From contig CAIVAR010000143.1 of NCBI GenBank assembly GCA_903904005.1, positions 1-49,595 on the forward strand: DNA of 49,595 nucleotides. Reading direction: 5' to 3'. This stretch comes from an uncultured Anaeromyxobacter sp. (GTDB lineage: Bacteria; Myxococcota; Myxococcia; Myxococcales; Anaeromyxobacteraceae). A model generated the notes under the pieces. It ran no database searches. It was not told the DNA's origin and was given only the letters and a program-made list of their open reading frames with translations. Below are positions 4,555 to 21,393 of this stretch, piece by piece; within the stretch, counting starts at the first letter, position 1, and every line of letters starts with the position of its first letter. Both the position numbers and the translations under genes were made by a program.

Positions 4555-5019
4555 TCAGTACCCGCCGGCGCCACCCGGCGTGTAGGGCCCACCGTCGACC
4601 GGTGCCGCCGCGGCGCGGATGGTGATCGTGCCGTTCGGCGTGATCATGAGCGAGGTGTGGCTGGTGCAGAAGTAGTGGAGCACCGTGCCGTCGGCGAGAC
4701 CGGCCGGGAGGACGAAGGTCTTCTTCCCGGTGAAGAGTCCCGTGTCGAACGGGGTCGACCCCGCCGGCGCGCCGGGGAGGAACGCGCCCGCAGCGGCCTG
4801 CTGCGTGACCGAGTGGGCCATGGTTTCCTGGTTGAGGACGGTGATCGTCGCTCCCGCGGGCGCCTCCAGGTTGAGGGGCGAGAACGACATGTTGGAGATG
4901 GAGATGTAGTACCCCGGCGGCAGCGGCGTGGCTGCCGACGAGGCCGAGTCTCCGCAGCCCGCCATGAGAAGCGAGGCAGCGACGAGGACGGACGTTCCGA
5001 GCATGCTTCGAGACGACAT
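4555..5019 (-). CDS. Cupredoxin-domain lipoprotein (blue-copper type)
   Basis: A 154-residue precursor. The start ATG follows GGAGG at 4-nt spacing. The N-terminus is a lipoprotein signal with a lipobox LLMAGC near residue 20. The mature part is a single plastocyanin-like domain: a His in MAHSVTQ and the C-terminal set FCTSH...M (Cys-x2-His-x3-Met), which together provide the four ligands of a type 1 copper site. The tail is Pro/Gly-rich. It probably carries electrons on the periplasmic side of a membrane. It is divergent from an ECF sigma operon across a 258-bp gap that contains an AT-rich inverted repeat, so shared control is possible but not shown. Confidence 0.8.
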   Translation of the reverse strand: MSSRSMLGTSVLVAASLLMAGCGDSASSAATPLPPGYYISISNMSFSPLNLEAPAGATITVLNQETMAHSVTQQAAAGAFLPGAPAGSTPFDTGLFTGKKTFVLPAGLADGTVLHYFCTSHTSLMITPNGTITIRAAAAPVDGGPYTPGGAGGY

Positions 5020-5140
5020 GTGGCCTCCCGTTCCGGAGGAAGTGGAATCCGGCTCTACTTTCACACCCCGGCGTCCGGGAAAGAGCCATGAAAACGGACA
5101 TTTACCTCCATGTCGGGTGCGTGTCCGCCGCCGCCCTCTT

Positions 5141-5159
5141 ATGCAAACGAAAAATGCAT
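5141..5159. repeat. AT-rich inverted repeat ATGCA-N9-TGCAT in the cupredoxin/ECF gap
   Basis: ATGCA (5141-5145) and TGCAT (5155-5159) flank AACGAAAAA. The patch is markedly AT-rich for this genome and lies between the divergent cupredoxin and ECF sigma genes. It could be an operator or part of the cupredoxin promoter; TTTGCATAAG reads on the minus strand. Confidence 0.35.
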
Positions 5160-5170
5160 GTCCCAAAAGT

Positions 5171-5194
5171 GAACGCTCCGGTGTCTTTCCCGTC
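5171..5194 (+). promoter_or_regulatory. ECF-type promoter GAAC-N16-CGTC upstream of the ECF sigma gene
   Basis: GAAC at 5171-5174 and CGTC at 5191-5194 are separated by exactly 16 nt, matching the general ECF sigma promoter form (GGAAC ... CGTC/TCTGA). Initiation would fall near 5200, so the ATG at 5197 would not be usable and the GTG at 5278 is favoured. This suggests positive autoregulation. Confidence 0.5.
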
Positions 5195-5277
5195 AGATGG
5201 GTGCGAGGCGGTTCCCCGGAGCGGTGGTCCGGGAGCCGTGGGGCCTCGGCCCGATCCGACACTGGGGGTGTCGAACT

Positions 5278-5769
5278 GTGGACCACCGCGAGGCGGCGGC
5301 CCGGCTATATCGGGACTTCGGCCCCGCGGTGTACAGGCGTTGTCTTCGACTCCTCCGTGACCGGGAGGGGGCGCAGGACGCGACGCAGGAGGTTTTCGTG
5401 CGCTTGGTGAGGAACATGGCTCGCCTGGAAGAACGGGGAGATGCGCTTCCCTGGATCTACAGGGTGACCACGAACCACTGCCTGAACGTCCTGCGGAACT
5501 CCGGCCGCCACGGGGAGGATGCCCTCCCCGTCGACCTCGAGGCCGACGAGCGTTCGGCAGCCGAGGCCCTTCCGGACCGGCGCCTGGCGCAGGAGTTGCT
5601 GGAGCGGTTCGACGCCTCGACCCAGGCCGTGGTCGTCGGCGTGTACGTGGACGGGATGGAGCGGGAAGAGGTCGCGGCGGTGCTCGGGATCTCGAAGCGA
5701 ACGGTGTCGAGGCGGCTCGAGAGGTTCCTGTCGAGTTCGAGGCGATTCATGGGGAGGGCTGCATCGTGA
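5278..5769 (+). CDS. ECF-family RNA polymerase sigma factor
   Basis: A 163-residue protein with sigma region 2 in the first 70 residues (LYRDFGPAVYRRCLRLL, then DATQEVFVRL and WIYRVTTNHCLN) and region 4 at about 105-155 (a helix-turn-helix reading EEVAAVLGISKRTVSRRLER). The two-domain structure without region 1.1 or 3 is typical of ECF (group 4) sigma factors. The 3' end overlaps the next gene by 4 bp (GTGA), so the pair is translationally coupled. The start was chosen from the promoter position; upstream in-frame codons are not conserved-looking. The ECF-like promoter in front suggests it transcribes its own operon. Confidence 0.88.
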   Translation: MDHREAAARLYRDFGPAVYRRCLRLLRDREGAQDATQEVFVRLVRNMARLEERGDALPWIYRVTTNHCLNVLRNSGRHGEDALPVDLEADERSAAEALPDRRLAQELLERFDASTQAVVVGVYVDGMEREEVAAVLGISKRTVSRRLERFLSSSRRFMGRAAS

Positions 5770-6533
5770 CCACGCGCTGTCCGTCGGACCTGAAGCTCGA
5801 GGCCTATCTTCTCGACGCCGAGAAGTCGGGGTTGGGCCCCCACGTCGACGCGTGTCCGGCCTGCCGCACCCGCCTCGAGCAGATGGCCTCCGAGGCCGAG
5901 GATTTCCGGAAGTTCGTGTTCCCGGCCACGGTGGACGCCGTGGTCGCGGCGGCCGCGCCCCGCCCCCGCATGGGCTGGTTCACCGCCCTCCTTCCCGTGG
6001 CCGCGGCCTGCGCCGCCGGCCTCCTGCTCCTCGTGAAGCCGGTTCCGCCCGAGGGGCTCCTCGCGGCCCAGGGAGACGTGCTGTCGCTCCAGGTCTTCGC
6101 CGATTCGCCGAAGGGCGCTCGCCAGCTCACCAATGGTGAACTGGTCGAGCAGTCGGCGCCCCTTCGCTTCGCCGTGAAGAGTTCCGTTCCCTGCCGCGTG
6201 CGGGTGATGGCCGTCGACTGCGAGGGCCGGGTCTCGGTCCTCTACCCGGCCGCCGGCGAGGAGGCCCGTCTCGTCACCGGCAGCGAGGTCCTGCCGGGCG
6301 AGGCCGTCCTCCCGGGCGACGAGGGGCCGGAGCGCATCTACGCGGTCTGCAGCCGCGAGCCCCTGCCCGTGCTGGCGCTCGCCGACTCGTTGAAGGATCA
6401 GTCGGCCGGCGACGACGACCGGGTGCGCCGCACCGATCGGATCTCCGGGCTTCCGCCTGGGACCCTGCAGGCGACCCTCCTCGTCGAGCACGGCGAGGAG
6501 AAGCCGGGTCACGACGGTCCGGAGAAGAAGTAG
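5766..6533 (+). CDS. Anti-sigma factor with zinc-binding ZAS motif and one TM helix
   Basis: 255 residues. The N-terminal cytoplasmic part carries His26-x3-Cys30-x2-Cys33, the zinc-associated anti-sigma (ZAS) signature. A single TM helix at about residues 71-90 follows. The roughly 165-residue C-terminal part would be periplasmic and resembles a DUF4384-like/sensor beta domain (LRFAVKSSVPCRVRVMAVD; VSVLYPAAGE). It overlaps the sigma gene by 4 bp and would hold the sigma at the membrane until an envelope or redox signal frees it. The zinc-Cys motif allows redox sensing, but this is only inferred. Confidence 0.85.
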   Translation: MTTRCPSDLKLEAYLLDAEKSGLGPHVDACPACRTRLEQMASEAEDFRKFVFPATVDAVVAAAAPRPRMGWFTALLPVAAACAAGLLLLVKPVPPEGLLAAQGDVLSLQVFADSPKGARQLTNGELVEQSAPLRFAVKSSVPCRVRVMAVDCEGRVSVLYPAAGEEARLVTGSEVLPGEAVLPGDEGPERIYAVCSREPLPVLALADSLKDQSAGDDDRVRRTDRISGLPPGTLQATLLVEHGEEKPGHDGPEKK

Positions 6534-6541
6534 GGGGACCA

Positions 6542-6579
6542 GGGGCGCGGTAGGCTCGAATACGTACCGCTTACGCCCC
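6542..6579 (+). terminator. Imperfect hairpin after the sigma/anti-sigma operon
   Basis: GGGGCG (6542-6547) pairs with CGCCCC (6574-6579), and CGGTA (6548-6552) pairs with TACCG (6565-6569), with a 4-nt bulge. It begins 8 nt after the anti-sigma stop codon. No T tract follows; it could act as a terminator or as a leader structure for the histidine kinase gene. The rest of the gap to 6662 shows nothing clear. Confidence 0.35.
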
Positions 6580-6662
6580 AGGCGGGGTGTGCCGGGTACG
6601 TTCACGTCGGTTGTCCATGGCCTGTCGCGCTTCCTCGAGCCGGTCCAGAGTGGGCCACCGTC

Positions 6663-9056
6663 TTGGCCTCCGAAATCCCCACCACGCGCCGCCGCAAGCC
6701 CAGGATCTCGCCGAGGAGCACCCCGGCCCGTCCGGCAGGTGTTGCACTCTGGGAGCGCGGTACCTTCCCCGAGCTGGAGGGCGTGCGTGCCGCCATGGAC
6801 GCGCTGCCCATCGGCGTGGTCTTCGCCGAGTGCGCGCAGGGCGGCGTGCCGGTCATCGTCTCCCACAACGCCGCCTACGCCCGGATCGTCGGGGTGAAGG
6901 CCCACGCGGCCACCCCGTTCCACGAGCTCCCCTTCAGCCTCTACCTGCCGGACCGCATGACGCTGGTCCCGCCGGAGGACTGGCCGGCCCCCCTGGCGGC
7001 GCGCACCGGGAACCCGGTCCGCGAGCGGGAGTTGCACCTCCGCCGCTCGAACGGGGAATGGCGGGTCCTTGCGGTCAGCGCGGCACCGCTGGCGAAGGAG
7101 GCCGGCGGCCTGGCGGGCAGGGCAGCGGGCGTGCTCCTCGATGTCACCGAGCGCCGCCGGGCCGAGGAGGACCTCTCCCGTCGCGGGCAGCTGCTCCGGA
7201 CCGTGATCGAGACCTCCCCCGACCCCGTCTTCGTGAAGAACCGCGAGTCGCAGTTCCTCTTCGCCAACCCGGCCACGCTGGGCGCGATCGGAAAGCCGGC
7301 GGACGAGGTGGTGGGGCACAGCACCGGGGAAATCTTCGACGACCCGGCGAGCGGGCTCGCCATCGAGGGGAACGACCGCCGGATCATGGAGAGCGGAGTG
7401 GCGGAGGTGGTCGAGGAGACCGTCCCGTCTCCCGGCGGGGAGCGCGTCTTCCTCTCCACGAAGACCCCCTGGCTCGACTCGACGGGGCAGGTGATCGGGA
7501 TCGTCGGCATCTCCCGGGACATCACCCAGCGCAAGCGCACCGAGGAGGCGCTGCGGGTGAGCGAGCGCCGGTTCCGCTCCCTCATCGAGCAGTCGAGCGA
7601 CATCCTGCTGCTCGTCGACGGTTCGGGGCGCGTCGGGTTCTGCAGCCCGGCCGCCGCGGTGGCCCTGGGCTGGAAGCCCGAGGAGGTGGAGGGCACCTCG
7701 GCCATCGATCTCGTCCACGCCGACGACCGGGCCGACGTCGCCAGCGGCTTCCGGGACGTGCTCGCGGCCGGCGGGAGCCAGGTGCGCCACCGGGCCCGGC
7801 TGCGTCACCGGGACGGCGGGTACCGGGTGGTCGACGGTGTCGCACGCGACCTGCGCGGCGATCCGGCCATCGGCGCCGTGGTGATCAACGCCCGCGACGT
7901 CACCGAGCAGGTCCGCACCGAGGAGATGCTCTTCCAGTCGCAGAAGCTCGACAGCATCGGCCGGCTGGCCGGGGGCATCGCCCACGACTTCAACAACCTC
8001 CTCACCGTCATCCTCTGCGGCGCGGCGTCGGAGGGAGAGGCGCTCGACGCCGGGCGGCCGGTCGAGCGGGAGGACATCGACCAGATCCGCCAGGCCGGGG
8101 AGCGCGCACGCGAGCTCACCAGCCACCTCCTGGCCTTCGCCCGGCGGCAGGTGATCGCGCCCTGCACGGTCGACCTGGGTACCATGCTCTCCCGGAGCGA
8201 GCCGCTGCTCCGCCGGCTGCTCGGGGAGACGGTCCGGCTCGAGACCTCCGCCGAGCCGGGCCTCTGGCCGGTCCGGTGCGATCCGGCGCAGGTGGAGCAG
8301 GTCATCCTGAACCTCGCCGTGAACGCCCGGGATGCCATGCCGGCCGGCGGGACCCTCGAGATCGCCATGGCGAACCTCCCCACTGCCCCGGGATCCGTCG
8401 ACCTTCCGGCCCTGGACCACGTCCGGCTGCGGGTCCGGGACTCCGGGAACGGGATGTCACGCGAGGTGCAGGAACACCTCTTCGAGCCCTTCTTCACCAC
8501 CAAGCCCTACGGGCACGGGACCGGCCTCGGGCTGGCCACCGTCTACGGCATCGTCCGGCAGGCCGGGGGTCACGTCCGCGTGGAGAGCGCCCCGGGGTCC
8601 GGGACCACCTTCGACGTCCTCCTCCCGCGCGCCCCGACGGGCGAGGTCATCGCCCCCGCACCGGAGCGGACCGATGCACCGGGCGGAACGGAGACGGTGC
8701 TCCTCGTCGAGGACGATGCTGGAGTGCGCCTGGCGACGGCCCGAGCCCTGCGAACTGCCGGATACCGGGTGCTCGCCGCGGACGGGGCCGAGGGTGCGGT
8801 CGAGGCGCTGCGGGGGGAGGAGACCCCGCCCGACGTCCTCGTCACCGACGTGATCATGCCCGACGCGACCGGCCGGGCGCTGGCCGACCGGCTGCGCGCC
8901 GAGCGGCCCGGGCTCCGGGTGCTCTTCCTGTCCGGGCACGGGGCGGACGTCCTGGGGCCGCACGGCGTGCTCGCCCCCTCCGAGTCCTTCCTGGCGAAGC
9001 CCTTCACCCCCGCGTCGCTCCTCTCCAAGATCCGCCAGGTCCTCGACGAGGGCTGA
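6663..9056 (+). CDS. Hybrid sensor histidine kinase: PAS x3, HisKA, HATPase, receiver
   Basis: 797 residues with no TM segment. Three PAS domains are followed by a linker to the kinase: roughly 45-165 (LDVTERRRAEE at its end), 175-295 (ISRDITQRKRTEE at its end) and 300-420 (INARDVTEQ at its end). The phospho-acceptor is His441 in GGIAHDFNNLL. The ATPase shows the N box NLAVNARDAM, then DSGNGMS and GTGLGLATVYG. The C-terminal receiver has the phosphorylatable Asp729 (LVTDVIMPD) and a conserved Lys (FLAKPF). A cytosolic hybrid kinase without an output domain must pass the phosphoryl group to a separate Hpt or regulator, none of which is adjacent. The TTG at 6663 has no good SD; ATG at 6795 is an alternative that would trim the N-terminal tail only. 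Confidence 0.9.
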   Translation: MASEIPTTRRRKPRISPRSTPARPAGVALWERGTFPELEGVRAAMDALPIGVVFAECAQGGVPVIVSHNAAYARIVGVKAHAATPFHELPFSLYLPDRMTLVPPEDWPAPLAARTGNPVRERELHLRRSNGEWRVLAVSAAPLAKEAGGLAGRAAGVLLDVTERRRAEEDLSRRGQLLRTVIETSPDPVFVKNRESQFLFANPATLGAIGKPADEVVGHSTGEIFDDPASGLAIEGNDRRIMESGVAEVVEETVPSPGGERVFLSTKTPWLDSTGQVIGIVGISRDITQRKRTEEALRVSERRFRSLIEQSSDILLLVDGSGRVGFCSPAAAVALGWKPEEVEGTSAIDLVHADDRADVASGFRDVLAAGGSQVRHRARLRHRDGGYRVVDGVARDLRGDPAIGAVVINARDVTEQVRTEEMLFQSQKLDSIGRLAGGIAHDFNNLLTVILCGAASEGEALDAGRPVEREDIDQIRQAGERARELTSHLLAFARRQVIAPCTVDLGTMLSRSEPLLRRLLGETVRLETSAEPGLWPVRCDPAQVEQVILNLAVNARDAMPAGGTLEIAMANLPTAPGSVDLPALDHVRLRVRDSGNGMSREVQEHLFEPFFTTKPYGHGTGLGLATVYGIVRQAGGHVRVESAPGSGTTFDVLLPRAPTGEVIAPAPERTDAPGGTETVLLVEDDAGVRLATARALRTAGYRVLAADGAEGAVEALRGEETPPDVLVTDVIMPDATGRALADRLRAERPGLRVLFLSGHGADVLGPHGVLAPSESFLAKPFTPASLLSKIRQVLDEG

Positions 9057-9593: not shown

Positions 9594-10172
9594 ATGCACG
9601 CTCCGTCACTCCTGCTCTCGGCGTTCGCCCCCGAGCTCTCCGGGCTGGACCGGAGGCCGCCCCCGGGGTGGGTCGTCGCCACCGTCGGGATCGGGGCGGT
9701 CACCGCTGCGGTGGAGACGGCTCGGCTGCTCCGGGAGCACCGTCCCCGAAGACTGCTCTTCGTCGGGACCTGCGGGGCCTACGACGAGCGGCTCGCCGTC
9801 GGGGAGGTCATCGCCGCCGCCGCCGCGATCGCCACGTCGGTCGAGGAGGTCCTCGGCCGCGCCTACCGGCCGGCGGCCGAGACCACCCGGTGGCCGACCG
9901 GCTGGACCCTCCCGCTTCCCACCCACGACGTGGCGGTCCCGCCGGCCATCACCCTCACCTGGGAGGGGGCCCGCGCGCTCGCCCGCGTCGCACCGGTCGA
10001 GCACCTGGAACTGACCGGCGTCCTCGCCGCCTGCGCCGCCGCCGGGATCCCGGCCGCCGCCGTGCTGGGCGTGGCCAACCGGGTCGGCCCCGATGCGCAC
10101 GCGGAGTGGAAGCGGGAGAACGCCCGGGTGAGCGCCCGGGTGGTCGAGGCGATCGCGCCGCACCTCGGATAG
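9594..10172 (+). CDS. Phosphorylase/nucleosidase superfamily protein, futalosine hydrolase-like
   Basis: 192 residues with the purine-nucleoside-phosphorylase/MTA-nucleosidase fold signals: GIGAVTAAVETARLL, LFVGTCGAY, then VEHLELTGVLAACAAAGIP in the position of the family active-site EMEG segment, and LGVANRVGPDAHAEWKREN near the end. The last motif, with its Trp after NRVG, resembles MqnB futalosine hydrolases of the alternative menaquinone pathway. The active-site Met is Leu and the Gly is Leu, so specificity is uncertain; MTA/SAH nucleosidase is the main alternative. No other mqn gene is nearby. The gene lies 3 bp before fdhD, so co-transcription is likely. Confidence 0.6.
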   Translation: MHAPSLLLSAFAPELSGLDRRPPPGWVVATVGIGAVTAAVETARLLREHRPRRLLFVGTCGAYDERLAVGEVIAAAAAIATSVEEVLGRAYRPAAETTRWPTGWTLPLPTHDVAVPPAITLTWEGARALARVAPVEHLELTGVLAACAAAGIPAAAVLGVANRVGPDAHAEWKRENARVSARVVEAIAPHLG

Positions 10173-10175
10173 GGC

Positions 10176-11036
10176 ATGGACGACGACGCCCCCCTCCCTC
10201 CGCGCGCCGGGACCACGATCGAGATCGAGGTGGTGCGCATCGACGGCGGGCGGGTGGAGCGGAGGCCCGACGCCGTCGCGGTCGAGGAGCCGCTCGAGGT
10301 CCGGGTCGACGGGGAGACGGTGGCCGTCACCATGCGGACGCCGGGGGCCGACGCGGACCTGGCGCTCGGCTTCCTCCTCGCCGAGGGGATGATCGCCGGA
10401 GCCGCGGACGTCGGTTCCGTGGCCCATTGCGGACGGCCCGGCGAGGAGGGGTACGGAAACGTCATCGACGTCCACTCCGCCGGCGGCCACCGGATCGATC
10501 CCGAGCGGGTGCTGGAGGGGCGGCGCTGGTCCACCACCTCGTCGGCCTGCGGGGTGTGCGGGCGGCGGAGCATCGACGGGCTGCTCGACCGCTGCGCGCC
10601 GGTGGGGGAGGCGCCGCCCCTGCACGCAGCGGAGATCCTGCGCTGCATGGCCCGGCTCGCGGCGTTGCAGCCGATCTTCTCGCGGACCGGGGGGCTCCAC
10701 GCGGCGGCGGCCTTCGGCGAGGGCGGGGAGTTGCTCGCCTCGGCCGAGGACGTGGGGCGCCACAACGCCGTCGACAAGGTGGTCGGCGCGCTGCTGCGCC
10801 GGGGGATGGCCGGGACGCCCGGGGGCGAGCGGGCCCGCCTGCTCGCGGTCAGCGGACGGACCAGCTTCGAGATCGTCCAGAAGGCGGCCGCCGCGGGGAT
10901 CACGGTGGTGGCCGGCGTCTCCGCCCCGAGCTCGCTCGCCGTGGCACTGGCGCGCGGGGCCGGCATTGCGCTCGTGGGCTTCGCGCGGGGCGAACGCCTG
11001 AACGTCTACACCCACGATCGCCGTGTCGCGACCTAG
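10176..11036 (+). CDS. fdhD: FdhD, sulfur carrier for formate dehydrogenase molybdenum cofactor
   Basis: 286 residues. The hallmark SACGVCG gives Cys125 and Cys128, which carry persulfide from a cysteine desulfurase to the Mo-bis-MGD cofactor of formate dehydrogenase. SRTGGLHAAA, EDVGRHNAVDKV and SGRTSFEIVQKA are all present. An N-terminal extension of about 25 residues is not unusual. No fdh structural gene is in the window, but a mobA gene is 15 kb away, consistent with a molybdoenzyme lifestyle. The TAG stop shares a CTAG palindrome (11033-11036) with the stop of the convergent patatin gene. Confidence 0.95.
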   Translation: MDDDAPLPPRAGTTIEIEVVRIDGGRVERRPDAVAVEEPLEVRVDGETVAVTMRTPGADADLALGFLLAEGMIAGAADVGSVAHCGRPGEEGYGNVIDVHSAGGHRIDPERVLEGRRWSTTSSACGVCGRRSIDGLLDRCAPVGEAPPLHAAEILRCMARLAALQPIFSRTGGLHAAAAFGEGGELLASAEDVGRHNAVDKVVGALLRRGMAGTPGGERARLLAVSGRTSFEIVQKAAAAGITVVAGVSAPSSLAVALARGAGIALVGFARGERLNVYTHDRRVAT

Positions 11037-16280: not shown

Positions 16281-17021
16281 GTGCGACGCATCGCCCTCAT
16301 CCCGGCGCGACTCGGCGCCACCCGCTTCCCGCGCAAGCTCCTCGCCCCGCTGGGCGGGAAGACCGTGATCCGCCGGACCTTCGAGGCGGTGCGCGACACC
16401 GGCCTCTTCGACGCGGTCCTGGTGGTCACCGACGCCGACGAGATCCGCGCCGAGGTCGAGCGCGCCGGCGGGGAGGCGCGGATGTCCACCCGTCCGCACG
16501 AGAGCGGCACCGACCGGATCGCCGAGGTGATGGAGGGGATCGAGGCCGACCTCGTCCTCAACGTCCAGGGGGACGAGCCGTTCACGAAGCGTGAACCGCT
16601 GGAGCGGCTGCTGGCCGCCTTCGAGGGGCCGGGCGGCCGGGACGTGGGCGTCGCCTCGCTGATGCAGGAACTGCACGACCCCGCGCTCGTCCAGGATCCC
16701 AACTACGTGAAGGTGGCGGTCGACGGCGCGGGGAACGCGCTCTTCTTCTCCCGCGCCCCCATCCCCTACGTGCGCGACGCCGCCGCGCGCCCCACCTTCT
16801 GGGAGCACATCGGCGTGTACGCCTTCCGCCGGGACGCGCTGCTGCGCTTCGCCCGGCTCCCCGCCGGCCCCCTCGAGCGGGCCGAGAAGGTGGAGTGCCT
16901 GCGCTTCCTGGAGCACGGGATCCGCATGCGGATGGTGGCGACCGACTACATGGGCGTAGAGATCGACACGCCCGAGGACCTGCGACGCGCCGAGGGGCTG
17001 CTGGCCGGCGAGACGCGCTGA
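16281..17021 (+). CDS. kdsB: CMP-Kdo (probably CMP-8-amino-Kdo) synthetase
   Basis: 246 residues, the normal KdsB size. Motifs: IPARLGATRFPRK at the N-terminus (CTP-binding loop), VVTDADEI, SGTDRIAEV, LVLNVQGDEPF, and GVEIDTPEDLRRAE at the C-terminus. The enzyme activates Kdo with CTP before transfer to lipid A. Its neighbours downstream are kdnB and kdnA, whose Shewanella counterparts make 8-amino-3,8-dideoxy-Kdo; the KdsB there prefers the amino sugar. The N-terminal loop ATRFPRKLL differs from the usual STRLPGKPL, which may reflect that specificity, though this is inference. The GTG start has no strong SD; the promoter is probably TAGGAT near 16237. It leads a three-gene operon. Confidence 0.92.
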   Translation: MRRIALIPARLGATRFPRKLLAPLGGKTVIRRTFEAVRDTGLFDAVLVVTDADEIRAEVERAGGEARMSTRPHESGTDRIAEVMEGIEADLVLNVQGDEPFTKREPLERLLAAFEGPGGRDVGVASLMQELHDPALVQDPNYVKVAVDGAGNALFFSRAPIPYVRDAAARPTFWEHIGVYAFRRDALLRFARLPAGPLERAEKVECLRFLEHGIRMRMVATDYMGVEIDTPEDLRRAEGLLAGETR

Positions 17022-17031
17022 AGGAGGGATC

Positions 17032-18102
17032 GTGCACAAGAACCTGAAGCAGGTGGGGCAGGTGATGTTCGGCCGCGGCGCGCTGGGGCAGCTCGACGCC
17101 GTCCTGGCCGACAACCGGCAGGGGACCGCCCCGGTGGTGTTCCTCGTCGACCACGTCTTCCGGGACCGGCCCGAGTTCGTGGCCCGCATCCCGGTGCGCG
17201 GCCGCGACCGGATCTACTTCGTCGACGTCACCCACGAGCCCAAGACCGGGGACGTCGACTCCCTGCGCGACCGGATCCGGTCCGAGCTGGGCAAGGTGTC
17301 GGGGCTCGTGGGCATCGGCGGCGGCTCCACCATGGATCTCGCCAAGGCGGTCGCCCTCATGCTCACCAACCCGGGCTCCTCCCAGGACTACCAGGGCTGG
17401 GACCTCGTCCAGGTGCCGGGCGTCTTCAAGGCCGGCGTGCCCACCCTCTCCGGCACCGGCGCCGAGGTGTCGCGCACCGCCGTCCTCATCGGGCCGACGA
17501 AGAAGCTGGGGCTGAACTCCGACTACACGCCGTTCGACCAGGTGCTGCTCGACCCCGACCTGATCGCCGGCGTGCCCGAGCGGCAGCGCTTCTTCACCGG
17601 GATGGACTGCTACATCCACAACGTGGAGTCGCTGCAGGGGCGGGCCATGAACGCCTTCGCCCGGGTCCACGCCGAGAAGTCGCTCGCCCTCTGCCGCGAG
17701 GTCTTCCTCGAGAAGGACCGCTGGGACGGCGACTCGGACGAGAAGCTCATGATGGCGTCCTGGATGGGCGGGATGTCCATCGCCTACTCGCAGGTCGGGG
17801 CGGCCCACGCCCTCTCCTACGGCCTCGGCTACGTGCTCGGGACGCACCACGGCGAGGGCAACTGCATCGCCATGCAGGTGCTCGAGGAGTTCTACCCGGA
17901 GGCGGCCGACTTCCGGCGCATGGCCGAGCGGGCCGGCGTCGAGATCCCCGGCGGCGTCGTCGCCGGGCTCCCCGCCGCGAAGCTCGACAAGATGGTCGAG
18001 GTGTCGCTGGGGATGGCCCCGCTCTGGCAGAACGTCCTGGGGGACGACTGGAAGCGGAAGATGACCCCGGAGCGCGTGCGCGCGCTCTACGAGCGGATGT
18101 AG
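17032..18102 (+). CDS. kdnB: KdnB, iron-containing Kdo 8-dehydrogenase
   Basis: 356 residues of the iron-containing alcohol dehydrogenase family. The dinucleotide site is GGGSTMDLAKAVAL, and TLSGTGAEVSRTAVL follows. The metal ligands lie in FTGMDCYIHNVESL and in HALSYGLGYVLGTHHGEGN, with two His. In Shewanella oneidensis KdnB oxidises the C8 hydroxyl of Kdo to the aldehyde, which KdnA then transaminates. The GTG start is 10 nt behind the kdsB stop, with a strong AAGGAGG. The order kdsB-kdnB-kdnA with close spacing is what identifies this gene rather than sequence alone, since this ADH family has many substrates. Confidence 0.88.
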   Translation: MHKNLKQVGQVMFGRGALGQLDAVLADNRQGTAPVVFLVDHVFRDRPEFVARIPVRGRDRIYFVDVTHEPKTGDVDSLRDRIRSELGKVSGLVGIGGGSTMDLAKAVALMLTNPGSSQDYQGWDLVQVPGVFKAGVPTLSGTGAEVSRTAVLIGPTKKLGLNSDYTPFDQVLLDPDLIAGVPERQRFFTGMDCYIHNVESLQGRAMNAFARVHAEKSLALCREVFLEKDRWDGDSDEKLMMASWMGGMSIAYSQVGAAHALSYGLGYVLGTHHGEGNCIAMQVLEEFYPEAADFRRMAERAGVEIPGGVVAGLPAAKLDKMVEVSLGMAPLWQNVLGDDWKRKMTPERVRALYERM

Positions 18103-18111
18103 GAGGCTGCC

Positions 18112-19302
18112 ATGCCCGGATACGAGATGTGGGGCGCCGAGGAGCGGCGCGAGGTCGAGGAGGTGCTCGAGACCGGCATCCTCATGCGCTACGGTTTCGA
18201 CGGCCCGCGGAAGGGGCGCTGGAAGGCCCGCGAGCTCGAGGCGGCGCTCTGCCGGCGGACCGGCGCGGCCCACGCGCAGGTGGTCTCCTCCGGGACGGCG
18301 GCGTTGACCACGGCGCTGGCGGCGCTCGGCGTGGGAGCGGGGCACGAGGTGATCCTGCCCACCTTCACCTTCGTGGCGAGCTTCGAGGCGGTGCTCTCGG
18401 TGGGCGCCACGCCGGTGCTCGTCGACGTCGACGACACCCTGACCCTCTCGCCGGCCGCCGCGCGCGCCGCGGTGACGCCGCGCACGAAGGTGGTCATGCC
18501 CGTCCACATGTGCGGCGCCATGGCCGACCTGGGCGCGCTCGACGACCTCTGCCGCGAGAAGGGGCTGCTCCTCCTCGAGGATGCCTGCCAGGCCACCGGG
18601 GGAACGTGGAAGGGGCGGGCCCTCGGCACCGTCGGCAAGGCCGGCTGCTACTCGTTCGACTTCGTGAAGACCATCACCTGCGGGGAGGGCGGGGCCATCG
18701 TCACCTCCGACCCGGAGGTGGCCCGGCGCTGCGACCAGTACGCCGACCACGGGCACGACCATCTCGGCGTCGACCGCGGCGCCGACCTGCACCCGGCGCT
18801 CGGCTACAACTTCCGCATCTCCGAGCTGCACGCTGCGGTGGGGCTCGCGCAGATCGGCAAGCTCGACCGGTTCCTCGCGATCCAGCGCCGCAACAAGCAG
18901 GCGCTCCGGGAGGCGCTCGCCGCCGTGCCCGGGGTCACCTTCCGCCGCATCCCCGACCCCGAGGGCGACAGCGCCTCCTTCCTGTCCTTCTTCCTGCCCG
19001 ACGAGGCCCGGGCCCGCGCCGCGGCGAAGGGCATGCAGGCGGCCGGGATCCCGGCCATGTACTGGTACGACAACAACTGGCACTACCTGCGCCGCTGGGA
19101 CCACCTCAAGTCGGCGTCCTCCTTCTCCCCGCTGCCGGCCCATGTGCGCGAGGCGCTCGCCGCGCTCGCCAGCCGTCCGTTCCCGGCCTCCGACGCGGTC
19201 ATGGCGCGCACCATCTCGACCCCCATCGCGCTCGGCTGGACGGCCGAGCAGCTCGACGAGCGGGGCGCGAAGCTCGCCGCCGCGGTGCGCTCGGCCGGGT
19301 AG
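18112..19302 (+). CDS. kdnA: KdnA, PLP aminotransferase making 8-amino-Kdo (DegT/DnrJ/EryC1 fold)
   Basis: 396 residues with DegT-family hallmarks: SSGTAALTTALAALGVG, EVILPTFTFVAS, LLLLEDACQATGG (Asp157) and the PLP lysine Lys186 in SFDFVKTITCGEGG. C-terminal AMYWYDNNWHY and RPFPASDAVMARTISTPI are typical of this clade. With KdnB it converts Kdo to 8-amino-3,8-dideoxy-Kdo using glutamate; CMP activation by the KdsB encoded upstream would follow. ATG 18112 has GGAGG 5 nt upstream, and the kdnB stop is 9 nt before. The gene ends 21 bp from the convergent GT9 gene. An alternative role in another sugar-amine pathway is possible but less likely given the cluster. Confidence 0.88.
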   Translation: MPGYEMWGAEERREVEEVLETGILMRYGFDGPRKGRWKARELEAALCRRTGAAHAQVVSSGTAALTTALAALGVGAGHEVILPTFTFVASFEAVLSVGATPVLVDVDDTLTLSPAAARAAVTPRTKVVMPVHMCGAMADLGALDDLCREKGLLLLEDACQATGGTWKGRALGTVGKAGCYSFDFVKTITCGEGGAIVTSDPEVARRCDQYADHGHDHLGVDRGADLHPALGYNFRISELHAAVGLAQIGKLDRFLAIQRRNKQALREALAAVPGVTFRRIPDPEGDSASFLSFFLPDEARARAAAKGMQAAGIPAMYWYDNNWHYLRRWDHLKSASSFSPLPAHVREALAALASRPFPASDAVMARTISTPIALGWTAEQLDERGAKLAAAVRSAG

Positions 19303-19323: not shown

Positions 19324-20316
19324 CTACGCCCTGTCGAGCAGCGCCCGCGCCTCGGCGGCCACCGTCGCCGCGGAGAGCTCGGTCATGCAGCGGTGGTGCC
19401 CCTCCGGGCACCGGTCCTGGCCATGGTTCGAGCAGGGAGCGCAGTCGATCGGGAAGCGCACCGCGCGCCCCGGCGGCGGCGGCCCCCAGCGCTCCGGAGA
19501 GGTCGGGCCGAAGACGGCCAGCACCGGCGTGCGGACCGCCGTCGCCAGGTGAACCGGTCCGGAATCGCAGGCCACGAGCAGGTCGACCGAGGCGAGTCCT
19601 GCGGCGAGCCCCTCCACCGGCAGGCGGGTGAGGTCCCCGGCGACCGGTGCGCGGAGCGCGGCGCGGAAGCGTTCGAGCGCGTCGGCGTCCCCCGGACCGC
19701 CGGCGAGGACCACGCTCGCGCCCTCCGCGGCGAGGGCATCGGCCACCTCGGCGAAGCGCTCGGCCGGCCAGAGCTTGGTGGCCCGGCTCGCTCCCGGAGC
19801 GATGGCCACCCGCGGGCGCCGCGCCCCGGCGAGCGCCGCCGCCGCGGCGTCGCGGGCCGTTCCGGAGAGGGCCACGCGGGTAGGGCCGGGCTCCGCGATC
19901 CCGAGGGGCAAGAGCACGTCGGCGTAGAGCCGGGTCGCGTGGGGCCCGCGCACCGGCGGGTCGACGCCGAGGAGCGCGAGCGCCGTCTGGCGGGAGGTCC
20001 GGCGCCGGAAGACCAGTTGCCGCCGCCCCGCCGCCCGCGCCACCACCGCGCTCTTCACCTTGTTCTGGAGGTCGATGGCGAGGTCGTACCGGCCGCGGAG
20101 CCGGACCGCGAGGTCGACCGCCTCCCGGATCCCGCCCCGCCCCAGCCGGTGGACCCGCTCGAGGCCGGGAAGCCCCTCGAGGAGGGGCGCGTAGGCCGGT
20201 GAGGTGACCCAGTCGATGCGGGCCCCGGGAAAGCGCGCCCGGAGCGGTTCGAGCACCGAGGTGGCGAGGACCACGTCGCCGAGCGCGCTGTAGCGGATGA
20301 CGAGGATGGAGCGCAA
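19324..20316 (-). CDS. GT9 glycosyltransferase, heptosyltransferase-like
   Basis: 330 residues in the ADP-heptose:LPS heptosyltransferase (GT9) family: ILVIRYSALGDVVLATSVLEPL at the N-terminus, VAIAPGASRATKLWPAERF at the nucleotide-sugar domain, VACDSGPVHLATAVRTPVLAVFG at the acceptor-phosphate site. The C-terminus has CAPCSNHGQDRCPEGHHRC, four Cys often found near the end of GT9 proteins and possibly zinc binding. It fits LPS core synthesis next to the kdn genes. TTG 20316 with a -10-like TACAAG 8 nt upstream is the best start; a longer N-terminus is unlikely because it would overlap the oxyR control region. Confidence 0.85.
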   Translation of the reverse strand: MRSILVIRYSALGDVVLATSVLEPLRARFPGARIDWVTSPAYAPLLEGLPGLERVHRLGRGGIREAVDLAVRLRGRYDLAIDLQNKVKSAVVARAAGRRQLVFRRRTSRQTALALLGVDPPVRGPHATRLYADVLLPLGIAEPGPTRVALSGTARDAAAAALAGARRPRVAIAPGASRATKLWPAERFAEVADALAAEGASVVLAGGPGDADALERFRAALRAPVAGDLTRLPVEGLAAGLASVDLLVACDSGPVHLATAVRTPVLAVFGPTSPERWGPPPPGRAVRFPIDCAPCSNHGQDRCPEGHHRCMTELSAATVAAEARALLDRA

Positions 20317-20324
20317 CGGAAGGA

Positions 20325-20330
20325 CTTGTA
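20325..20330 (-). promoter_or_regulatory. -10-like TACAAG 8 nt before TTG 20316
   Basis: Minus strand TACAAG, 8 nt, TTG. TTGCCT lies 18 nt further upstream as a possible -35. It fits the leaderless pattern seen elsewhere in the window. Confidence 0.4.
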
Positions 20331-20365
20331 CCGGCGGAGCGGCGCGCCAGGCAAGGAGCCAGGGT

Positions 20366-20382: not shown

Positions 20383-21393
20383 ATGCGGTCGAGCCCCCAC
20401 CCGTTCACCCTCCGACAGCTCCAGTACGCCGCGGCCGTCGCCGACCTGCGCTCCTTCCGGCGCGCCGCCGAGCGCTGCCACGTCTCCCAGCCCTCGCTCT
20501 CGGCCCAGGTGATCCAGCTCGAGCAGCTCCTCGGCGTCCGGCTCTTCGAGCGGGGGTCGCGCAAGGTGCTCATCACCGCGGCCGGGGAGGCGGTCCTCGA
20601 GCGGGCTCGGCGGCTGCTCCTCGAGGCCGACGACCTCGCCGACAGCGTCCGCCAGCTCGGCGACCCGCTCGCCGGGACGCTGCGCCTCGGGGTCATCCCC
20701 ACCGTGTCCCCGTACCTCCTCCCGGAGGTGGTGCCCGCGCTCCGGGCCCGCCACCCGGGGCTCTCCGCGGTGTGGGTGGAGGACAAGACCGAGAACCTGG
20801 TGGAGGCGCTGCGGGAGGGACGGCTCGACGGCGCGCTGCTCGCGCTCGAGGCGCCGCTCGGGGAGGTGGAGAGCGAGGTGGTCTGCGAGGATCCGTTCGT
20901 GCTCGCGGCGGCGCCCGGCCACCCGCTCGTCCGCGTCACCACGCCGGCGACGCCCCAGGAGCTCCGGGGCGCCGGTTTCCTTCTCCTCGACGACGGCCAC
21001 TGCTTCCGGGACCAGGCGCTCGCCTACTGCGCAGCGTCGCGGGGGAGGGAGCTCGACTTCCGCGCCACGAGTCTCGCCACCCTGGCCCAGATGGTGGCGG
21101 GGGGCGCCGGGGTCACGCTGCTGCCGCGCATCGCGCTCCCGGTCGAGAACCGGCGCTCCGAGCTCGCGGTGCGGCGGCTGGCGAGCCCCGAGCCGCACCG
21201 GACCCTGGCGCTCGTGTGGCGGCCGCGGTCGCCGCTCGGTCCCGCGCTGCGCCGCCTGGCCCTCACCATCCGGGAGGCGTGCCTGGGGGCCCAGGCGCGG
21301 CTGGAGGCCGCGGCCGGCGGCGCGGCCGGCGCGACGGCGCGAAAGGCCGCGTCTCGCGGTCGGGCGCAGGGCGGCCGGAGGGAGGGGCCATGA
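20383..21393 (+). CDS. oxyR: OxyR, peroxide-sensing LysR-type regulator
   Basis: 336 residues. The N-terminal LysR helix-turn-helix is FTLRQLQYAAAVA... SFRRAAERCHVSQPSLSAQ. The effector domain contains DDGHCFRDQALAYC, the OxyR redox pair (Cys207 and Cys216, nine apart, as in E. coli Cys199/Cys208), followed by DFRATSLATLAQMVAGGAGVTLLP. Peroxide should form the disulfide and switch DNA binding. No katG or ahpC is adjacent; the gene is coupled to cls by a 4-bp ATGA overlap. A basic Ala/Gly-rich C-terminal tail of about 35 residues is longer than usual. An exact OxyR-type site lies directly on its start. Confidence 0.93.
   Translation: MRSSPHPFTLRQLQYAAAVADLRSFRRAAERCHVSQPSLSAQVIQLEQLLGVRLFERGSRKVLITAAGEAVLERARRLLLEADDLADSVRQLGDPLAGTLRLGVIPTVSPYLLPEVVPALRARHPGLSAVWVEDKTENLVEALREGRLDGALLALEAPLGEVESEVVCEDPFVLAAAPGHPLVRVTTPATPQELRGAGFLLLDDGHCFRDQALAYCAASRGRELDFRATSLATLAQMVAGGAGVTLLPRIALPVENRRSELAVRRLASPEPHRTLALVWRPRSPLGPALRRLALTIREACLGAQARLEAAAGGAAGATARKAASRGRAQGGRREGP

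What the first reader, a model, noticed from the sequence alone, without database searches (positions are those of the whole stretch)
16281..19302. kdsB-kdnB-kdnA cluster predicts 8-amino-Kdo in the LPS
The three genes are adjacent, same strand, gaps 9-10 nt, with motifs of CMP-Kdo synthetase, iron ADH and DegT aminotransferase. This is the Shewanella Kdo8N pathway, and a GT9 heptosyltransferase-type gene is next to it. If the host is a myxobacterium, its lipid A-core linkage sugar would be modified in an unexpected lineage.
Basis: partly seen in the sequence, partly recalled or inferred. Interest (0 to 1): 0.6.

Follow-up and report, generated by a model that had tools for sequence, protein, structure and literature searches.

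The report
Borrowed 8-amino-Kdo operon in a myxobacterium
An uncultured Anaeromyxobacter relative carries a three-gene operon, most likely acquired from a Bacteroidota bacterium, that should make an amino version of the sugar that anchors lipopolysaccharide to the outer membrane; this sugar has been reported chemically only from Shewanella in the papers I could read.

Summary
16281-19302 holds kdsB-kdnB-kdnA, same strand, gaps 10 and 9 nt, Shine-Dalgarno-like sites before genes 2 and 3. KdnA and KdnB match the solved Shewanella oneidensis enzymes far above any other relative (477 vs 180 bits; 416-422 vs 85 bits), with metal and PLP residues kept. The host is an uncultured Anaeromyxobacteraceae genus: kdnB occurs in all 4 sampled species and in none of 191 other Myxococcota. 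Trees put all three proteins inside Bacteroidota (Chitinophaga relatives carry kdnA-kdsB-kdnB), not next to Shewanella, so the operon was most likely acquired as a unit from Bacteroidota. The genome also keeps a native kdsB beside pyrG-kdsA; of 46 other relatives, 44 have one kdsB, two none detected. The Kdn-linked KdsB belongs to a separate clade marked by Glu227, two residues before a metal ligand: 83/86 of this clade, 0/52 canonical KdsBs; two of three exceptions lack KdnA. Best reading: Kdo -> 8-oxo-Kdo -> Kdo8N -> CMP-Kdo8N, made alongside CMP-Kdo. Placement on lipid A is inferred (one waaA gene). New member of a known pathway; the wider Bacteroidota distribution is the more consequential part.

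The parts
16281..17021 (+). kdsB, Kdn-associated type: CMP-Kdo8N synthetase (Kdo8N cytidylyltransferase), 246 aa
   Evidence: NF003952/TIGR00466 above cut-off; AlphaFold model pLDDT 91, TM 0.91 to CMP-Kdo synthetase 1gqc; clade of KdsBs from kdn+ genomes 100/99 support; signature C206, E227
17032..18102 (+). kdnB, Kdo 8-oxidase/dehydrogenase (iron-containing ADH family), 356 aa
   Evidence: 422/416 bits to 3rf7/5k8c, next PDB hit 85 bits; 56-58% identity; metal-ligand candidates D192, H196, H259, H273 invariant; tree
18112..19302 (+). kdnA, PLP-dependent 8-aminotransferase (DegT/DnrJ/EryC1/StrS family), 396 aa
   Evidence: 477 bits to 5k8b (S. oneidensis KdnA), next PDB hit 180 bits; PLP lysine K186 in SFDFVKTITCGEGGA; tree
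19324..20331 (-). GT9 glycosyltransferase, heptosyltransferase-like; convergent neighbour, conserved in the genus, not part of the operon
   Evidence: PF01075 139 bits; TIGR02193/TIGR02195 about 125 bits, below cut-offs of 185/135; synteny

Best explanation
A horizontally acquired, functional Kdo8N operon. KdnB oxidises C8 of free Kdo to the aldehyde (8-oxo-Kdo), KdnA transaminates it to 8-amino-3,8-dideoxy-manno-octulosonate (Kdo8N), and the co-transferred specialised KdsB activates it as CMP-Kdo8N. Glu227 of this KdsB is the best candidate for recognising the C8 ammonium. The native kdsB (kdsB-pyrG-kdsA locus) still makes CMP-Kdo, and the single waaA transferase probably places either sugar on lipid A, giving mixed or condition-dependent Kdo/Kdo8N lipopolysaccharide. 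Shown: gene identity, orthology, linkage, distribution, nesting in Bacteroidota (implying transfer), two KdsB lineages, purifying selection. Inferred: the reactions (from the Shewanella enzymes), the substrate preference of each KdsB, and incorporation into LPS.
For: Very specific matches to the two solved S. oneidensis enzymes. Three trees agree on placement within Bacteroidota group I. KdnA and KdnB co-occur: 23/23 kdnB+ genomes have KdnA, 26/26 KdnA+ genomes have KdnB against 0/14 KdnA-. About 60 of 78 Bacteroidota-type kdnB loci have a kdsB within 5 kb, and 22 show kdnA-kdsB-kdnB. In Myxococcota kdnB is present only in this genus, 4/4 species, 0/191 others. Two kdsB genes in 4/4 of the genus; among 46 other relatives 44 have one and 2 have none detected. 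Signature residues C206/E227 separate Kdn-linked from canonical KdsB, and two KdnA-less members of the clade have Gly at 227. Host has kdsA, pyrG, a second kdsB, an LpxL-like gene, msbA, waaA, lpxK, hldE and a heptosyltransferase. dN/dS 0.13-0.20.
Against: No chemistry or enzymology. Shewanella KdsB could not be fetched, so the signature was not checked on the one KdsB for which I recall Kdo8N specificity. The E227 correlation rests on few exceptions, one of which (L080) has Gly although its genome has both kdn genes. Group II KdnA/KdnB-like pairs in Bacteroidia live with canonical KdsB, so the pairing is not absolute. The host genome is a draft MAG.
Confidence: 0.8

Rival explanations
1. The operon makes CMP-Kdo8N, but for a surface polymer other than the lipid A-core linkage (capsule, O-chain side sugar), while the native KdsB supplies CMP-Kdo for lipid A.
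For: Two distinct KdsB lineages are retained; only one WaaA-type gene is detected and it lies with native LPS genes; the kdn operon is not in an LPS gene cluster.
Against: Where the linkage has been determined (Shewanella), Kdo8N sits between core and lipid A (PMC6357163, PMC3210612). In all 20 genomes examined with the same KdsB type it is the only KdsB lineage (19 with one copy, one MAG with two of the same type), so there it must serve lipid A. No dedicated second transferase is linked.
Confidence: 0.15
2. KdnA/KdnB/KdsB have drifted to a related substrate (another C8-oxidisable 3-deoxy-ulosonate), so the product is a different amino-ulosonic acid.
For: DegT and Fe-ADH families are broad; group II homologues (43-50% identity) are associated with canonical KdsB and may differ in product.
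Against: Window KdnB is 56-58% identical to Shewanella KdnB with all metal ligands and long conserved motifs kept, and all three genes stay together; the KdsB model matches CMP-Kdo synthetases best.
Confidence: 0.08
3. The operon is a silent or decaying transfer without phenotype.
For: Horizontally acquired; native kdsB kept.
Against: Conserved in all 4 sampled species of the genus with dN/dS 0.13-0.20, intact frames, host-like codon use (GC3 0.96-1.00) and retained ribosome-binding sites.
Confidence: 0.03

Closest known systems
Shewanella oneidensis Kdo8N pathway (KdnB Q8EEB0, PDB 5k8c; KdnA, PDB 5k8b; Gattis et al. 2013 J Biol Chem, cited in PMC5125639)
   Same: Same two enzyme families, catalytic residues kept, and an accompanying KdsB gene
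   Different: Host retains a second, canonical KdsB; sequences are Bacteroidota-like. Product not demonstrated. The Gattis paper itself was not held and not read, so gene order and KdsB specificity in Shewanella rest on memory.
Chitinophaga-type kdnA-kdsB-kdnB cluster (e.g. L017 C. alhagiae, L020 C. pinensis, L033 C. filiformis)
   Same: Closest sequences outside the genus (KdnA 63-70%, KdsB 57-64%, KdnB 60-63%), same three genes, same strand
   Different: Order kdnA-kdsB-kdnB; this KdsB is the only one in the genomes examined
Canonical KdsB (E. coli KdsB 3k8d, KpsU 1gq9, Aquifex 2y6p; native copy on contig C170)
   Same: Fold, CTP/metal motifs, both metal aspartates
   Different: Q at the C206 position and mostly G/S/A/C at the E227 position; separate, well-supported clade

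Membership tests
KdnB (Kdo 8-oxidase, FeADH3) | Closest to characterised KdnB rather than other Fe-ADHs | tested here: met
   416-422 bits vs 85 for the next PDB entry; tree clade 100/99 with S. oneidensis KdnB, separate from group II
KdnB (Kdo 8-oxidase, FeADH3) | Metal-binding D-H-H-H set | tested here: met
   D192, H196, H259, H273 invariant with both Shewanella sequences; assignment as ligands from Fe-ADH family knowledge
KdnA (Kdo8N aminotransferase) | Closest to characterised KdnA; PLP lysine present | tested here: met
   477 vs 180 bits; K186 aligned with VKTITCGEGGA in 5k8b; tree clade 100/99
Kdo8N pathway | KdnA, KdnB and a KdsB encoded together | tested here: met
   Operon in 4/4 species of the genus
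Kdo8N pathway | KdsB selective for Kdo8N over Kdo | tested here: inconclusive
   Kdn-linked clade and E227/C206 signature; no Shewanella KdsB sequence available for comparison, no assay
Kdo8N pathway | Kdo8N present in LPS | not testable with these tools
   Needs chemical analysis
KdsB (CMP-Kdo synthetase family) | Curated family cut-off, fold and metal aspartates | tested here: met
   NF003952 257 bits (193), TIGR00466 160.6 (155.2); D98 and D229 present; TM 0.91 to 1gqc
Heptosyltransferase (GT9 neighbour) | Curated heptosyltransferase I/II cut-off | tested here: not met
   124.8/124.6 bits against 185.3/134.6: heptosyltransferase-like only

The most novel reading that the evidence does not exclude
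The host runs two parallel CMP-ulosonate pathways, native CMP-Kdo and acquired CMP-Kdo8N, feeding one WaaA, so the charge of its lipid A-core linkage could be adjustable; and Kdo8N is a general feature of Chitinophagales-type Bacteroidota, which have only the Kdn-type KdsB and would have replaced Kdo altogether, with Glu227 as the switch of sugar specificity.
Probability: 0.4. Interest if true: 0.7.

Novelty: new member of a known kind. Interest (0 to 1): 0.5.

Why it matters
Kdo is commonly treated as a near-invariant part of LPS, and its 8-amino form is described as a hallmark of Shewanella (PMC6357163, PMC3210612). The sequences predict that the modification is common in Bacteroidota and has moved between phyla as a ready-made operon with its own activating enzyme. 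That is directly testable in cultured Chitinophaga. It also gives a residue-level hypothesis (Glu227) for the sugar specificity of CMP-Kdo synthetase, an enzyme studied as an antibacterial target (PMC7717453), and a candidate way to put a positive charge in the inner core.

Tried and rejected
Shewanella as the immediate source: not supported by the trees (KdnB, KdnA; no Shewanella KdsB was available). Contamination or chimeric contig: rejected by synteny in other genomes of the genus and host-like codon use. Recent duplicate of native KdsB: rejected (42-43% identity, different clade). Plasmid- or phage-borne kdnA: no match in plasmids or phages. A Shewanella KdsB for the signature test could not be obtained; a sequence written from memory was used only as a search query in plasmids and viral contigs and found no close match, so it is not used as evidence. 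The original Gattis 2013 and Zachman-Brockmeyer 2016 papers were not held. The idea that E227 lies on the same face of a strand as D229 was dropped: the model shows residues 221-230 as a loop. No coordinates were available to measure the distance to C8.

Full report
Observation. Three same-strand genes lie at 16281-17021, 17032-18102 and 18112-19302 with gaps of 10 and 9 nt. AAGGAGG and AGGAGG precede the second and third genes. They have the codon signature of this G+C-rich genome (GC3 0.96, 1.00, 0.98). The first is a CMP-Kdo synthetase family member above curated cut-offs, the second an iron-containing alcohol dehydrogenase, the third a DegT/DnrJ/EryC1/StrS aminotransferase. The neighbour GT9 gene is on the other strand and converges on the operon; it scores below the curated heptosyltransferase cut-offs.

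Identity. Against all PDB sequences KdnA scores 476.8 bits to 5k8b, named 8-amino-3,8-dideoxy-manno-octulosonate transaminase, next best 179.8. KdnB scores 421.8 and 415.7 to 3rf7 and 5k8c, the latter named 3-deoxy-manno-octulosonate 8-oxidase, next best 85.3. Alignments keep D192, H196, H259 and H273 in KdnB and K186 in KdnA. The FeADH review PMC5125639 lists S. oneidensis KdnB as the characterised member of subfamily FeADH3.

Host. The window lies in a 4.56 Mb draft genome, 98% complete. The closest named records are 'uncultured Anaeromyxobacter sp.' and 'Anaeromyxobacteraceae bacterium' MAGs. All four sampled species of the genus carry kdnB; the operon sits in the same gene neighbourhood where contigs are long enough (MFS, kdsB, kdnB, kdnA, GT9, oxyR-like). 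dN/dS between species is 0.13-0.20. KdnB is absent from 191 other Myxococcota genomes and KdnA from 56 other relatives.

Two KdsB genes. The genome has a second kdsB, 43% identical, next to pyrG and kdsA, with an LpxL-like acyltransferase gene nearby. All four species of the genus have both; of 46 other relatives, 44 have one and two, both below 90% complete, have none detected. One WaaA-type Kdo transferase gene is detected, with msbA, lpxK, hldE and a heptosyltransferase on the same contig.

Origin. In 22 of these loci the order is kdnA-kdsB-kdnB, and about 60 of 78 have kdsB within 5 kb. In the KdnB tree the genus nests in Bacteroidota with support 96/96, the Shewanella pair lying outside. 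KdnA gives the same with 100/99. In the KdsB tree the window protein falls in a clade (100/99, stem length 0.89) of 35 KdsBs, 33 from genomes with kdn genes, while the native copy groups with Myxococcota (99/94). The simplest account is a single transfer of the triad from a Bacteroidota-type source into an ancestor of the genus; the exact donor and the change of gene order are not resolved.

Functional coupling. KdnA is found in 23 of 23 kdnB+ genomes, nearly all Bacteroidota, and in 22 of 24 further ones (the two negatives are MAGs). KdnB is found in 26 of 26 KdnA+ genomes and 0 of 14 KdnA- genomes. Of 20 genomes examined, 19 have exactly one KdsB and one MAG has two of the same type, so there the Kdn-type KdsB must supply lipid A biosynthesis.

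Specificity signature. Comparing 86 Kdn-type with 52 canonical KdsBs, position 206 is Cys in 81 vs 0 (canonical Gln in 51) and position 227 is Glu in 83 vs 0 (first seen, where one Kdn-type row, L053, had been mis-binned by a score threshold and was moved after inspection; it lies next to kdnB and its genome has KdnA). Position 227 is two residues before D229, which aligns with Aquifex D219, a ligand of the catalytic Mg-A (PMC3149649). The three Kdn-type rows without Glu227 have Gly. Two come from genomes without KdnA (G231, G226; G226 also without KdnB). The third, L080, has both kdn genes and is a counterexample. These rows are related and the positions were chosen from the same data, so this is a hypothesis, not a test. 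The AlphaFold model of the window KdsB (pLDDT 91.3, pTM 0.88) matches CMP-Kdo synthetases best (TM 0.91 to 1gqc).

A second group of KdnA/KdnB-like pairs (43-50% identity) occurs in many Bacteroidia and goes with canonical KdsB. Their product is unknown, so kdn-like annotation alone should not be read as Kdo8N.

Interpretation. The pathway assignment is strong by homology and linkage; the chemistry is inferred. Retention of the native kdsB argues for mixed Kdo/Kdo8N rather than replacement in this host. In the papers held, Kdo8N is described as a hallmark of Shewanella (PMC6357163; PMC3210612), and the titles and abstracts returned by the full-text search for Kdo8N and related names show no report from Bacteroidota or myxobacteria; subscription literature was not searchable, so priority cannot be claimed.

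Noticed in passing
L254 (IMGVR_UViG_3300017971_000228), 4974-7536 and 10104-10628: A 98 kb contig classed as viral carries a KdnB-like Fe-ADH (42%), what looks like a DegT-type aminotransferase and an SpsF-like nucleotidyltransferase: a possible KdnAB-like pair on a virus or provirus. The last two were named from sequence by eye.
   Followed up: partly
Bacteroidia genomes such as G587, G616, G305, G463 (loci L135-L158, L174-L184): A separate group II of KdnA/KdnB-like pairs, 43-50% identical, often adjacent, with canonical KdsB; in G305 and G463 kdsB lies within a few kb. Function unknown.
   Followed up: partly
L221 (G231) and L224 (G226): Bacteroidota with a Kdn-type KdsB but no KdnA found, and Gly in place of Glu227: possible loss of the pathway with reversion of KdsB.
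   Followed up: partly
L081 and L088: MAG contigs labelled Beijerinckiaceae and Comamonas carry Bacteroidota-type kdn loci; the class sample drawn around the L088 genome overlaps the Bacteroidota sample, so labels or binning are probably wrong.
   Followed up: partly
G000 contig C118:5906-6118 (L003, L006): A third, distant CMP-sugar synthetase-like match (41% over 72 residues), perhaps for another ulosonic acid.
   Followed up: no
window 20383-21393: LysR-type regulator closest to OxyR, just beyond the GT9 gene and conserved there in the genus; any link to the kdn operon is unknown.
   Followed up: no
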